From contig NZ_CP064942.1 in NCBI RefSeq assembly GCF_015679265.1, positions 3,204,001-3,268,000 of the forward strand: DNA of 64,000 nucleotides, in the 5' to 3' direction. The notes under the pieces were generated by a model. The model made no database searches, was not told the DNA's origin, and saw only the letters and a program-made list of their open reading frames with translations. This document shows positions 54,889 to 58,108 of this stretch, one piece after another (the first letter of the stretch is position 1; each line of letters starts with the position of its first letter). Origin of the DNA: Pontivivens ytuae (GTDB taxonomy: Bacteria; Pseudomonadota; Alphaproteobacteria; Rhodobacterales; Rhodobacteraceae). The translations under genes and the position numbers were made by a program.

Positions 54889-55326
54889 TCATGCCGCCGC
54901 CTCGCCCGTGAGCGGTGTCACGAGGTCGGAGGTCGTGTCCGGTGGCGGCAGTCGACCCAGGATGCGCGCGCGCAGGGCCTCAGGCCGTTCTTCACGACGC
55001 AGGAACCCTTCTTCGGCCTCGCGATAAAGCGGAACCAACGCGAGCAACGCATCGACATGATCGGGCGCCTCGGGATCGAGATCTCCGAAAACATAGGTGA
55101 ACTGGTCGCTTGCCGAGAGGGAAACCACGCAGGGACGCTTGCATTGGCTCATGCAGCTCACACCGCGAATGCGCAGTGCCGGTCGTTCGGTTTGGTCCGC
55201 CAGACGCGCGAGAACGGCGTCGGCCAGGCGCCTGCCCCCTCTGATGCTGTCGCGATCATTTTCGCGCCCGTCGCGGCAGGTCAGGCAGATCGACAACAAG
55301 GGCAATTCAGGTTCGAGATCGCGCAT
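54889..55326 (-). CDS. DUF1636 cysteine-containing protein
   Basis: 145 residues from ATG 55326; an ATG at 55338 is in frame but lies within 3 bp of the Zur-type palindrome. Four cysteines, LLSICLTCRDG and RGVSCMSQCKRPC, form a ferredoxin-like metal or Fe-S site, characteristic of DUF1636. I know the family mainly next to metal or cobalamin uptake genes and COG0523 GTPases. Here it leads the leftward half of the locus. Exact role unknown. Confidence 0.85.
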   Translation of the reverse strand: MRDLEPELPLLSICLTCRDGRENDRDSIRGGRRLADAVLARLADQTERPALRIRGVSCMSQCKRPCVVSLSASDQFTYVFGDLDPEAPDHVDALLALVPLYREAEEGFLRREERPEALRARILGRLPPPDTTSDLVTPLTGEAAA

Positions 55327-55337
55327 GGCCCGCAACA

Positions 55338-55357
55338 TGTAATGTTATAACATTGCA
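55338..55357. promoter_or_regulatory. Zur-type operator between DUF1636 and zur genes
   Basis: AATGTTATAACATT at 55341-55354 is a perfect 14-bp palindrome, flanked by TG and CA two bases out. It matches the Zur box of gram-negative bacteria (GAAATGTTATAACATTTC type) rather than a Fur box (GATAATGATAATCATTATC). It is 57 bp before the regulator's ATG and 14 bp before the DUF1636 ATG, so one site should control both directions. Confidence 0.85.
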
Positions 55358-55411
55358 CACGCTAAGCCTGCGCGTTAGTCTTCGTCAAGGTGTGTTGGAG
55401 CGAGGCACACG

Positions 55412-55816
55412 ATGGCGAGCGACCCGAAACGCAAGACCCATGCCGAACGCGTGCTGGAGCATCTGCGCCGCCAGACAAAGCCCTTGTCGGCCTATCAGAT
55501 CCTCGAGGATCTCCGCGGTGAAGGCGTGACGGCGCCAACGACGGTATACCGCGCACTTGACCAGCTCGTTGCGTCCGGACGCGCCCACCGGATCGAGTCG
55601 CTCAACGCCTTTACCGCCTGCAGCGACCCGAGCCACACAGAAACGCCCGTGTTCGAAATCTGCGAGGACTGTGGAGCCGTGACCGAGCATGTCGACGCCC
55701 GCCTTGCCGAGAGCATCGCTGCCCTTTCCAGCCATTCGGGCTTCACGCCCCAGCATTCGATCATCGAAATCCGCGGCCGCTGCGGCGCCTGCCGTCCGGA
55801 CGCGCAAACGACTTGA
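55412..55816 (+). CDS. zur: Fur-family regulator, Zur type
   Basis: 134 residues. Winged helix with QILEDLRGEGVTAPTTVYRALDQLVASGRAHRIESLNAF, the DNA-recognition segment of Fur proteins. Structural zinc cysteines Cys84/Cys87 (CEDC) and Cys124/Cys127 (CGAC). Other metal-site candidates are Cys70, His75 and His93. With the Zur-type palindrome in front and a COG0523 GTPase behind, zinc-responsive autoregulated repression is the best reading; Fur-type iron response is less likely. Confidence 0.88.
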   Translation: MASDPKRKTHAERVLEHLRRQTKPLSAYQILEDLRGEGVTAPTTVYRALDQLVASGRAHRIESLNAFTACSDPSHTETPVFEICEDCGAVTEHVDARLAESIAALSSHSGFTPQHSIIEIRGRCGACRPDAQTT

Positions 55817-55827
55817 AGGACCCGATT

Positions 55828-56796
55828 ATGGATCAGACCACGCAAATCCCCGTCACCGTGCTCACCGGTTTTCTTGGTGCCGGGAAGACCACGCTTCTCA
55901 ACCGGATCCTCACTGAGCGGCATGGGAAGCGCTACGCGGTCATCGTCAACGAGTTCGGCGAGGAGGGCATCGACAACGATCTCGTGGTCGATGCCGACGA
56001 GGAAGTGTTCGAGATGAACAACGGCTGCATCTGCTGCACCGTGCGGGGCGACCTGATCCGCATCCTCGGCGGCTTGATGAAGCGCGCCGACAAGTTCGAT
56101 GCGATCATCGTGGAGACCACTGGTCTCGCCGATCCCGCGCCTGTGGCCCAGACCTTCTTCGTCGATCAGGACGTAGCGGACCGCACGCGGCTCGATGCCA
56201 TCGTGACGGTGGCCGACGCAGTACATCTGAGCAACCAGCTCGGCGAGCATCACGAAGCCGAAGAGCAGATCGCCTTCGCCGACATCGTTCTGCTCAACAA
56301 GACGGACCTGGTCAAAGCGGATGGCCTGAGCGGCGTCGAGGAGCGCATCCGCCGCATCAACCCCTACGCAAAGATCATCCGGACCGAGCGCTGCGGAGCC
56401 GACCTCGACGAGGTGATCGGACTGAACGCCTTCAGCCTCGACCGCGTGCTGGAGGTGGAGCCCGATTTCCTGACCTCCGACCATGACCACGAGCATGACG
56501 ATGATGTGAAAAGCATCTCGCTGGTGTCGGAGGAGCCGCTGGATCTCGAGAAGTTCCAGACGTGGTTCGGCCACCTTCTTCAGACGAAAGGGCCCGACAT
56601 CCTGCGCTCCAAGGGCATCCTCGACTTCAAAGGCGAGAACAACCGCTACGTCTTCCAGGGTGTTCACATGCTGATGGATGGTGCGCCGATGGGCTCCTGG
56701 CCCGGGGGCGCGCGGCAGTCGCGGCTGGTCTTCATCGGGCGCAATCTCGACACGATGGGCCTCGAAGACGGTTTCGCCGCATGTCGAGCGGCGTAG
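55828..56796 (+). CDS. CobW/COG0523 GTPase (zinc metallochaperone type)
   Basis: 322 residues from ATG 55828 with GAAGGA upstream. P-loop GFLGAGKT at 14-21, the CICC metal motif at 67-70 (NNGCICCTVRGDL), the Walker B/switch ETTGLADPAP, and the base-specificity NKTD. A His/Asp-rich linker (DHDHEHDDD) precedes the CobW C-terminal domain (FQGVHMLMDG). Zur-controlled members of this family hand zinc to client proteins during starvation. It starts 12 bp after zur. Confidence 0.92.
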   Translation: MDQTTQIPVTVLTGFLGAGKTTLLNRILTERHGKRYAVIVNEFGEEGIDNDLVVDADEEVFEMNNGCICCTVRGDLIRILGGLMKRADKFDAIIVETTGLADPAPVAQTFFVDQDVADRTRLDAIVTVADAVHLSNQLGEHHEAEEQIAFADIVLLNKTDLVKADGLSGVEERIRRINPYAKIIRTERCGADLDEVIGLNAFSLDRVLEVEPDFLTSDHDHEHDDDVKSISLVSEEPLDLEKFQTWFGHLLQTKGPDILRSKGILDFKGENNRYVFQGVHMLMDGAPMGSWPGGARQSRLVFIGRNLDTMGLEDGFAACRAA

Positions 56797-57854
56797 CGGC
56801 GGACGCGGCGCGCCAGGACCTGCGCCTCGGAGGTTTCGAAGAGACCCAGCTCGAACGTCAAGGCCTTACGCTCGATACCGGCGCACCGGTGACCGCCGCC
56901 GTCTCGACCGGCACCGGCGTTGCAGCTGCGTTCGGCGATGGCGTCGTCCGATTCTTTCGCCCCGACGAGCCACCGTTGATCGTCGAGGCCCATCGCGGCG
57001 CCGTGCTCTGCCTGGTGGCTGAGGGGACGTCAGGGGCGGTGCTCACCGGTGGCGACGATGGCAGGTTCCTGCGTGTGACTGCGGACGGCACGGTCGAAGA
57101 GATAGCGAGCTTCGGCACGCGGTGGGTGGACTGCGTCGCCGCCGGGCCAGGCCACTACGCTTGCTCATCTGGCCGCACAGCCCATGTCTGGCATGCAGGT
57201 CGGCCCACCGCGAGGACGTTCGATCATCCAAGCACCGTCGGTGGTCTCGCCTTCGATGGGAAGGCCCGCCGTCTGGCCGTGGCACATTACGGCGGGGCCA
57301 CCGTCTGGGAACGCGGCGAGCGCCGGTGGAAGTCGTCGAAGTTTGTGTGGAAGGGGTCGCACGGTGCGGCGACCTTCAGCCCGGACCGAAAGTACCTCGT
57401 GACATTGATGCAGGAGAACGCCCTCCACGGATGGCGGTTGCGCGACAAGGCCGACATGCGGATGTCCGGCTACCCTGCGAAGGTGAAGAGCTTCACCTGG
57501 ATCGGCAGCGCGCCGCACCTTGCGACGTCGGGCGCGGATCAGGCGATCTGCTGGCCCTTCGAAGGTAAGGACGGACCGATGGGGCGCCCGCCGGACACCT
57601 GTGCCTATGGCGGCAAGCAGCTTTGCACCGCGGTGACGGGACTTCTCGGGCACGACGGCGTTTTGGCCGGCTTCACGGACGGCTGTGTGCTCGCCGGGCG
57701 CGTGTCCCCGGACGGTGCGTCGGAGGATCTGGTCGTCAAAGGGTCGAGCGGCACACCGGTGGCCGCGTTGGCACTGACACCGGAGGGCTGGCTTTTCGTC
57801 GGTGAGGAAGGTGGTCGCGTCCTTTGGGTTCGACTTGGTGGGAAGCCCGCATGA
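56781..57854 (+). CDS. WD40-like beta-propeller protein
   Basis: 357 residues from ATG 56781, overlapping the CobW gene by 16 bp. Repeating segments of about 40 residues with the WD40 rhythm are visible: GVAAAFGDGVVRFF, GAVLTGGDDGRFLRV, HYACSSGRTAHVWHAG, RLAVAHYGGATVWERG, APHLATSGADQAICWPF. This makes a six- or seven-bladed propeller without a signal peptide, so it is cytoplasmic. It presumably scaffolds the GTPase or its client. No catalytic residues seen; role unknown. Confidence 0.82.
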   Translation: MSSGVAADAARQDLRLGGFEETQLERQGLTLDTGAPVTAAVSTGTGVAAAFGDGVVRFFRPDEPPLIVEAHRGAVLCLVAEGTSGAVLTGGDDGRFLRVTADGTVEEIASFGTRWVDCVAAGPGHYACSSGRTAHVWHAGRPTARTFDHPSTVGGLAFDGKARRLAVAHYGGATVWERGERRWKSSKFVWKGSHGAATFSPDRKYLVTLMQENALHGWRLRDKADMRMSGYPAKVKSFTWIGSAPHLATSGADQAICWPFEGKDGPMGRPPDTCAYGGKQLCTAVTGLLGHDGVLAGFTDGCVLAGRVSPDGASEDLVVKGSSGTPVAALALTPEGWLFVGEEGGRVLWVRLGGKPA

Positions 57855-58108
57855 AGAACCTCTTTGCCCGTCGTGCCGCACCGGGGCGTGCTGCTGAGGT
57901 GAAGGCTTGGGTTATCCAGCATCTTGCTCTGACCGACGACGATCTCGTGACCGTGGCAGAACTCGCCTGCCACGAGCCGGGCTGCCCGCCCGTGGAAACG
58001 GTCGTGACCGTGCATGGATCGGACGGCTCGCGTCGGACATGGTGTGTTCACAGAGCGTTGGCTGACATCGACGAAGGGGATGTCACAACTGCTCTGTCGG
58101 GGGACTGA
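57851..58108 (+). CDS. Small conserved cysteine-motif protein
   Basis: 85 residues from ATG 57851, overlapping the WD40 stop (ATGA). The centre reads VAELACHEPGCPPVETVVTVHG, two cysteines with a His that could bind metal, and a third Cys follows in RTWCVHRALADI. I do not have a family name. Being the last gene of the zur-cobW-WD40 unit, it could be a substrate or adaptor of the GTPase. Confidence 0.72.
   Translation: MKNLFARRAAPGRAAEVKAWVIQHLALTDDDLVTVAELACHEPGCPPVETVVTVHGSDGSRRTWCVHRALADIDEGDVTTALSGD

What the first reader, a model, noticed from the sequence alone, without database searches (positions are those of the whole stretch)
54889..58108. Bidirectional Zur-box locus joining a Fec-type importer to a COG0523 GTPase, a WD40-like protein and an 85-aa Cys protein
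Seen: a perfect 14-bp palindrome (55341-55354) between divergent genes, with DUF1636-ATPase-binding protein-permease to the left and Fur-family regulator-CobW-WD40-small protein to the right, the last genes overlapping. Known: this palindrome is the Zur type, and Zur-controlled COG0523 GTPases act as zinc chaperones. Inference: the locus both imports chelated zinc, through a FecCD-type rather than ZnuABC-type system, and allocates it via a GTPase with a propeller scaffold. The WD40-like and 85-aa partners have no described role that I know of.
Basis: partly seen in the sequence, partly recalled or inferred. Interest (0 to 1): 0.85.

Follow-up and report, generated by a model that had tools for sequence, protein, structure and literature searches.

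The report
Zinc-starvation cluster with an undescribed small protein
A bacterial gene cluster that looks built to be switched on by zinc shortage couples a metal importer to a zinc-handling GTPase, a propeller-shaped partner and a tiny unnamed protein that often lies beside such GTPases in several bacterial phyla and may be an overlooked helper.

Summary
A perfect 14-bp palindrome (55341-55354) separates DUF1636-ATPase-binding protein-FecCD permease from a Zur-like regulator, a COG0523 GTPase, a WD40-like protein and an 85-aa protein. Its 15-mer matches 14 of 15 bases of the Zur motif listed for P. denitrificans aztA, and 16 of 17 divergent promoters of this type (window included) keep the core. 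Zur control is well supported; zinc import by the Fec-type system is only inferred. A separate zur/znuA locus exists, so regulator and importer are additions.

COG0523-WD40 linkage under Zur is known (Haas 2009). The 85-aa protein has no Pfam, NCBIfam or PDB relative. One scan found 371 relatives; the 80 loci kept come from several phyla. COG0523 lies within 3 kb in 75 of 80, WD40 in 62. It accompanies at least three COG0523 clades, though some homologues stand without COG0523.

Predicted folds: alpha-beta-beta-beta-alpha with a C-x4-C-P loop, and a probable eight-bladed propeller. Best reading: a Zur-derepressed zinc import and GTP-dependent allocation module, the 85-aa protein being a GTPase partner, possibly a zinc relay or client adaptor. 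That role is untested.

The parts
51926..53071 (-). FecCD-type ABC permease
   Evidence: PF01032 310 bits
52992..53933 (-). Fec/Btu-type periplasmic binding protein; Met start at 53933, signal-like N-terminus (by reading)
   Evidence: PF01497 80.5 bits; PDB 4mlz 138 bits, BtuF about 37 bits
53905..54861 (-). ABC ATPase
   Evidence: PF00005 122 bits
54889..55338 (-). DUF1636 protein, Cys-rich; the family is assigned a thioredoxin-like [2Fe-2S]-ferredoxin fold in PMC4520260
   Evidence: PF07845 107 bits; paper passages
55339..55354 (.). Zur-type box: 14-bp palindrome 55341-55354; 15-mer GTAATGTTATAACAT at 55339-55353
   Evidence: 14 of 15 identical to the motif listed for P. denitrificans aztA; core kept in 16 of 17 intergenic stretches, window included
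55412..55816 (+). Fur-family, Zur-like regulator, 134 aa; second Zur-like protein of the genome
   Evidence: FUR 27.6 bits; NF008646 (Zur) 81.6 bits, below its cut-off of 167; 41% identical over 115 residues to the regulator beside znuA
55813..56796 (+). COG0523 (CobW) GTPase with GFLGAGKT, GCICC and NKTD motifs; start may be ATG 55828
   Evidence: PF02492 203.5 and PF07683 87 bits; motifs; PDB YjiA 198.7 bits
56781..57854 (+). WD40-like protein, 357 aa, predicted propeller of 32 strands, read as eight blades
   Evidence: AlphaFold pLDDT 93.6; Foldseek matches
57851..58108 (+). 85-aa protein of an unnamed family; alpha-beta-beta-beta-alpha; C40-x4-C45-P46 in the loop between strands 1 and 2
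   Evidence: no Pfam or NCBIfam family

Best explanation
This is a Zur-controlled zinc-starvation module in two divergent arms. Zinc-loaded Zur (this paralogue or the one beside znuA) sits on the palindrome and silences both arms; when zinc runs short both are made. The left arm makes a Fec-type importer plus a cysteine-rich DUF1636 protein, probably to bring in a metal complex useful under zinc shortage. The right arm makes a COG0523 GTPase that holds zinc at its GCICC motif and passes it to client proteins in a GTP-dependent way, a probable eight-bladed propeller that holds GTPase and client together, and an 85-aa protein that works with the GTPase, most likely as a zinc relay or client adaptor using its C-x4-C-P loop. 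Shown: gene content, box conservation, cross-phylum linkage, predicted folds. Inferred: zinc response here, the imported substrate, complex formation, and what the WD40 and 85-aa proteins do.
For: Box identity and conservation. The same layout, importer-DUF1636 divergent from Zur-CobW-WD40-small, recurs elsewhere. In other genomes the parts sit in islands with ZnuABC- or AztABC(D)-type, hisI, DUF1826 and Fur genes. COG0523 within 3 kb of the small gene in 75 of 80 loci, 54 of 56 with full flanks; WD40 in 62 of 80. Of 17 plasmid records with the small gene seven were opened, and COG0523 is beside it in six. WD40 beside COG0523 in 21 of 23 WD40 loci of the family, the other two being contig-edge fragments of one genome. 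Small and WD40 co-occur in 13 of 394 family genomes, 21 having WD40 (E <= 1e-20) and 30 small (Fisher p 2.4e-11, not corrected for kinship; both calls are taken to have drawn the same 394 genomes). Small-adjacent GTPases fall into at least three COG0523 clades. Precedents: P. denitrificans pden1338 (COG0523) with two hypothetical genes, Zur motif, 8.6-13.2 fold up in zinc-depleted medium; GTP-dependent zinc transfer to MetAP1 by eukaryotic ZNG1, as summarised in PMC10642216 (passages).
Against: No expression, binding or metal data for this organism. The regulator scores under the Zur equivalog cut-off. The small gene is optional: 11 of 23 WD40 loci show it beside WD40; 30 of 394 family genomes and 16 of 398 phylum genomes have it. 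Some homologues stand without COG0523 in reach: L101 (8 kb on each side), L195 and L196 (16 kb in all) and L198 (WD40 but no COG0523 in 16 kb; all), and Calothrix L033 (none annotated in 12 kb). Of the 18 phylum loci other than the window, COG0523 shows in the roughly 1.5 kb held on each side in 11, WD40 alone in five more, neither in two. No fusion of the small protein to a GTPase was found. The importer's relatives include B12 and siderophore types. PMC10642216 calls ZNG1 a eukaryote-specific subfamily, so the ZNG1 parallel is an analogy.
Confidence: 0.6

Rival explanations
1. The 85-aa protein is a regulator of the GTPase cycle (GAP or nucleotide-exchange type) rather than a metal relay or client adaptor; its cysteines are structural or form a redox switch.
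For: Tight linkage to several COG0523 clades; a small compact alpha-beta-beta-beta-alpha domain.
Against: The best-conserved stretch is the two-cysteine loop and the start of strand 2, though motif conservation in the loci is partly by construction, as the scan pattern contained it.
Confidence: 0.25
2. The 85-aa protein acts on the ribosome or RNA under zinc starvation, like the hibernation factor that the CobW-domain protein Mrf recruits in mycobacteria.
Confidence: 0.08
3. The left arm imports a cobalamin or other corrinoid rather than a zinc complex, so that the locus lowers zinc demand or serves cobalt.
For: BtuF-type proteins are among the PDB relatives; cob genes sit next to the same transporter set in Gemmobacter; P. 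aeruginosa PA2914, co-transcribed with PA2911 whose promoter binds Zur, is called a cobalamin-permease homologue.
Against: Zur boxes at the conserved divergent promoter. The closest PDB relatives are unnamed periplasmic binding proteins, not BtuF, and no B12 equivalog cut-off is reached.
Confidence: 0.35
4. The WD40-like protein is a cytoplasmic counterpart of AztD, itself a zinc-transfer propeller.
For: AztD is described as an eight-bladed metal-transfer propeller; this model also has 32 strands.
Against: No significant sequence similarity (E 0.59); AztD is not named in the 50 Foldseek rows shown of 1994; no obvious signal peptide (by reading).
Confidence: 0.1

Closest known systems
COG0523 subfamily 5 clusters (Haas et al. 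2009, PMC2770081; passages)
   Same: COG0523 GTPase clustered with WD40-repeat genes and znuABC, several members predicted downstream of a Zur site; the subfamily holds most eukaryotic members.
   Different: No 85-aa protein, DUF1636 or Fec-type importer appears in the passages seen; the subfamily placement of the window GTPase was not tested with eukaryotic sequences.
P. denitrificans pden1338-1344 operon (Neupane et al. 2017, PMC5387054; abstract and passages)
   Same: COG0523 gene followed by two hypothetical genes, Zur motif, strong zinc-depletion induction.
   Different: Followed by a nickel/dipeptide-type importer, not Fec. Whether pden1339 and pden1340 are the WD40 and 85-aa families could not be checked here. 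COG0523-small-dipeptide-type-importer orders were seen in Phyllobacterium, Sinorhizobium and, with a weak small match (E 5e-6), Bosea.
P. aeruginosa PA2911-PA2914 (PMC8531726; passages)
   Same: A Btu-type ABC system overexpressed under zinc limitation, with a Zur-bound promoter.
   Different: Includes a TonB-dependent receptor; no COG0523, WD40 or 85-aa gene is named with it in the passages seen.
AztD (PMC6689063; passages)
   Same: Eight-bladed propeller in zinc clusters, often with CobW-family neighbours.
   Different: Periplasmic or extracellular; no significant sequence similarity to the window protein.
Mycobacterial Mrf, MSMEG_6069 (PMC7174638; passages)
   Same: CobW-domain protein induced by zinc starvation that recruits a small ribosome factor (as cited there).
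   Different: NCBIfam Mrf model far below cut-off for the window GTPase; different neighbours.

Membership tests
COG0523 / CobW GTPase | cobW and CobW_C domains above the Pfam cut-offs | tested here: met
   203.5 and 87.2 bits
COG0523 / CobW GTPase | Walker A, GCxCC and NKxD motifs | tested here: met
   GFLGAGKT at 19, GCICC at 71, NKTD at 162, numbered from the TTG start
COG0523 subfamily 5 of Haas 2009 | WD40 neighbour and Zur-type site | tested here: met
COG0523 subfamily 5 of Haas 2009 | Phylogenetic placement with eukaryotic members | not tested
   No eukaryotic sequence was used; the tree holds bacterial sequences only
Zur regulator | Fur-family protein next to a Zur-type box | tested here: met
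Zur regulator | NCBIfam Zur equivalog cut-off | tested here: not met
   81.6 against 167 bits; that the model is centred on enterobacterial proteins is recalled
Zur regulator | Zinc-dependent binding to the box | not testable with these tools
   needs EMSA
Fec/Btu-type ABC importer | FecCD permease, Peripla_BP_2 binding protein and ATPase in one cluster | tested here: met
Fec/Btu-type ABC importer | Zinc-complex specificity | not testable with these tools
   needs binding assays
WD40 / beta-propeller | Propeller fold | tested here: met
   pLDDT 93.6, 32 strands; 1865 PDB matches at E <= 0.001, the rows shown being mostly WD40 propellers
AztD | Sequence homology to AztD | tested here: not met
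   best blastp E 0.59 with one AztD sequence
Mrf (hibernation-factor recruiter) | NCBIfam NF047431 cut-off | tested here: not met
   33.8 against 375 bits
HPF/dsRBD-type small protein (85-aa protein) | Fold similarity | tested here: inconclusive

The most novel reading that the evidence does not exclude
The 85-aa protein founds an unnamed, cross-phylum family of dedicated partners of COG0523 zinc GTPases. With the WD40 propeller it forms a zinc-transferase complex that supplies, as a separate protein, the client-docking or zinc-relay element. Eukaryotic ZNG1 is recalled (the motif was in no paper seen here) to carry such a docking element as a short Cys-Pro motif in its own N-terminal extension; the window GTPase has no such extension.
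Probability: 0.3. Interest if true: 0.8.

Novelty: new variant of a known kind. Interest (0 to 1): 0.58.

Why it matters
How COG0523 GTPases choose and load their clients in bacteria is still open. A small conserved partner encoded beside them in several phyla, plus a propeller partner, gives a concrete set of proteins to purify together and test. If the 85-aa protein binds zinc or bridges GTPase and client, it would explain part of how bacterial zinc transferases work and relate them to the eukaryotic ZNG1 system. Pairing it with a Zur-linked Fec-type importer and DUF1636 also offers a test of whether such importers carry zinc complexes or corrinoids.

Tried and rejected
Rejected: a fusion of the 85-aa protein with COG0523, WD40, DUF1636, DUF1826 or HisI proteins (none detected in the loci held). 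AztD ancestry of the WD40 protein. Mrf membership. A mobile element with two tRNA-derived ends: the 25-base tRNA-Thr end occurs once in the genome with up to 3 mismatches. Paracoccus aestuarii as a stand-in for pden1338-1340: no COG0523 or small match in the stretch of its dipeptide-type importer; Gemmobacter fulvus likewise. Both one-mismatch boxes of the genome were looked at: the L149 site lies inside ORFs and looks like chance; the L150 site lies at the start of an ORF and was not pursued. No solved structure related to the 85-aa family at a useful E-value (three hits, best E 0.15). PHROGs: two hits at E 0.06 and 0.08, not believed. AztD is absent from the Foldseek rows shown. One search covered an irrelevant family; only its genome coordinates were used.

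Caveats on counts: the loci were found with a pattern holding [EDL][PD][GN]CP[PD]xETV, so invariance of those positions among them is partly by construction; C40 was not in the pattern. In the phmmer set (34 of the 120 listed, of 148, aligned) C40 is invariant and C45 nearly so. The 53 members of A4 and 41 of A5 were picked by hand for diversity. COG0523 detection used tblastn with reference GTPases from the window and two plasmid loci. Of the 30 family loci, 25 show COG0523 in the roughly 1.5 kb held on either side. Several of those hits are weak (E 1e-5 to 1e-9), and in L184 the GTPase lies beyond a 368-codon ORF that I read as an alcohol dehydrogenase. In 2 of the 13 genomes with both genes (G727, G754) the small hit lies by hisI, not by WD40. 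The tree was midpoint-rooted and shown without support values. Two of the seven PF02492 matches of the genome are marginal.

Literature: searches gave listings only, and none was seen to describe the 85-aa family; passages of PMC6103462, PMC4176598, PMC10642216 and PMC10957091 did not either. The library lacks most subscription journals.
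Full report
Observation. The gene order, the overlaps and the palindrome are as described. Left of the palindrome, on the minus strand: DUF1636 (54889-55338), ABC ATPase, Fec/Btu-type binding protein and FecCD permease. Right of it, on the plus strand: a 134-aa Fur-family protein, a COG0523 GTPase, a 357-aa WD40-like protein and an 85-aa protein. The last two genes overlap by ATGA.

Regulation. 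The 15-mer GTAATGTTATAACAT at 55339-55353 differs by one base from the motif listed for P. denitrificans aztA (pden1595), GTAATGTAATAACAT, in a table of Zur motifs; the paper reports EMSA tests of Zur on such promoters (Neupane 2017, passages). Across 17 divergent DUF1636/regulator intergenic stretches, the window among them, 16 keep the core ATGTTATAACAT with at most 2 mismatches, against 110 of 3400 shuffled stretches (L024 and L060 are one locus and several SAR116 stretches are near-duplicates). Rarity of the core in the genome is not evidence by itself: with one mismatch it has four places, the backward control five matches per strand. The genome has four Fur-family matches and three ZnuA-type matches. 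One regulator lies divergent from znuA, with an ATPase and a permease ORF behind it that I read as znuCB, and a box with two core mismatches between them; it is 41% identical to the window regulator. The window regulator is therefore a second Zur-like protein. The other perfect core in the genome lies upstream of a 405-aa COG0523 gene.

The GTPase. It has both CobW domains and the three motifs, and is one of seven PF02492 matches in the genome, two of them marginal. In a tree of 104 COG0523 sequences from the loci held (no support values shown) it sits in a clade with WD40-linked and small-linked members from Alphaproteobacteria, Streptomyces, Cyanobacteria, Nitrospira, Acidobacteria and Chloroflexi. 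Haas 2009 (passages) reported that prokaryotic COG0523 'subfamily 5', which also holds most eukaryotic members, clusters with WD40 genes and znuABC and that several members have predicted Zur sites. The COG0523-WD40 part is thus known.

The WD40-like protein. AlphaFold gives pLDDT 93.6 and 32 strands, which I read as eight four-stranded blades; eight-bladed designs and proteins stand high in the Foldseek list with query TM 0.69-0.77, against about 0.60 for seven-bladed WDR5 (most blade numbers recalled). A stretch around Q211-K234 (Q-x4-H-x-W ... M-x-G-Y-P-x-K) is nearly invariant in 41 sequences from Alphaproteobacteria to Streptomyces. It shows no significant similarity to AztD. In the family-wide search 21 of 394 genomes have it at E <= 1e-20; 21 of 23 loci show a COG0523 gene beside it, and the other two are contig-edge fragments of one genome.

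The 85-aa protein. It matches no Pfam or NCBIfam family, alone or as 53 relatives, and no solved structure. Phmmer found 148 relatives at E <= 0.001. A pattern scan of GTDB genomes found 371 relatives and kept 80 loci, whose titles include Alphaproteobacteria, Cyanobacteria, Nitrospira, Acidobacteria, Planctomycetota, Chloroflexi, Myxococcota and Actinomycetes (some phyla inferred from lower ranks). In those 80 loci a COG0523 gene lies within 3 kb in 75 (54 of 56 with full 3-kb flanks) and WD40 in 62. The five without are two contig-edge cases (L059, L076), L107 (less than 3 kb held on one side), L108 (3062 bp away) and L101 (none found). With seven PF02492 matches in 4.2 Mb, about 1% would be expected by chance (my estimate). 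Gene order varies: CobW-WD40-small in many Alphaproteobacteria, small-CobW-WD40 in Streptomyces and Pseudonocardia, COG0523-small without WD40 next to AztABC in Rhizobiales, and COG0523-small-DUF1636-DsrE-cysteinyl-tRNA synthetase in a cyanobacterium (L094, where the GTPase frame looks interrupted). The adjacent GTPases belong to at least three clades, so the small protein has followed COG0523 proteins as a class.

Where it does not fit. In 18 further loci from the phylum search (16 of 398 genomes, the window's own included) COG0523 shows in the roughly 1.5 kb held on each side in 11, WD40 alone in five, neither in two. Wider stretches around the two (L195, L196) show no COG0523, and L198 has WD40-small without COG0523 in 16 kb. 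Of seven plasmid records opened out of 17, Calothrix L033 has the homologue with an SmtB-type repressor and a cation ATPase nearby but no annotated COG0523. The protein is patchy: 30 of 394 family genomes.

The importer arm. Importer-DUF1636 divergent from Zur-CobW-WD40-small recurs in L022, L024 (= L060), L036, L037, L041, L044, L051, L053-L057, L062, L064 and L068 (gene order left of DUF1636 differs in L036 and L037; L053-L056 are near-duplicates). In Gemmobacter the same transporter set lies in a zinc island next to cobalamin genes. The nearest PDB sequences to the binding protein are unnamed periplasmic binding proteins, then Fe-complex and B12 types. The substrate stays open. P. aeruginosa PA2911-PA2914 is a precedent for a Btu-type system in the zinc response.

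Setting. A tRNA-Thr gene (50072-50146), a recombinase remnant and an AT-rich stretch lie just left of the permease, and the WD40 gene was found in 1 of 4 genomes of the genus, the window's own. The locus looks acquired.

Mechanism. I commit to a Zur-derepressed zinc import and allocation module, with the GTPase as zinc transferase, the propeller as scaffold and the 85-aa protein as GTPase partner, most likely relay or adaptor. Zur control (about 0.9) and a zinc role for the GTPase (about 0.8) are likely; physical partnership of the 85-aa protein with the GTPase about 0.6; the relay/adaptor role about 0.3; zinc-complex import about 0.5.

Noticed in passing
window 50072-51900: tRNA-Thr followed by a recombinase-like ORF with only a borderline zinc-ribbon domain match and an AT-rich stretch (GC 0.51 in 51000-51999 against about 0.65-0.70 around): probable remnant of an integrated element left of the zinc locus.
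   Followed up: partly
G000:C1:2005198 (L002, L017): The only other perfect ATGTTATAACAT in the genome lies upstream of a 405-aa COG0523 gene, followed by DUF1826 and a further COG0523 gene.
   Followed up: partly
G000:C1:2536000-2540000 (L148): Separate zur-like (160 aa) / His-rich znuA locus with an imperfect box; ATPase and permease ORFs behind the regulator were identified by reading only.
   Followed up: partly
L094 7000-10500; L107 1800-3500; L115 7000-8700: Cyanobacterial clusters put the 85-aa homologue directly before DUF1636, with COG0523 (L094, L115), a cysteinyl-tRNA synthetase (L094) or an amidase (L107).
   Followed up: partly
L185 6268-8835: In one family genome matches to two parts of the small gene lie about 1.3 kb apart, with ORFs between them that read like a transposase, beside WD40, CobW and ZnuABC-like genes.
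   Followed up: no
L168 (same place as L019), L170, L172, L174, L180: A divergent branch of the 85-aa family (C-x4-C-P-G-P type) lies next to or near hisI in genomes of the family; COG0523 is seen in three of these five loci.
   Followed up: no
L029 5992-6279 and plasmid hits H8, H10: Public annotation calls some 85-aa homologues 'nitrate reductase', which nothing here supports.
   Followed up: no
window 58676-62245: Two adjacent Amidohydro_3 genes (598 and 573 aa) follow the zinc locus; the first has a TAT-signal match below cut-off.
   Followed up: no
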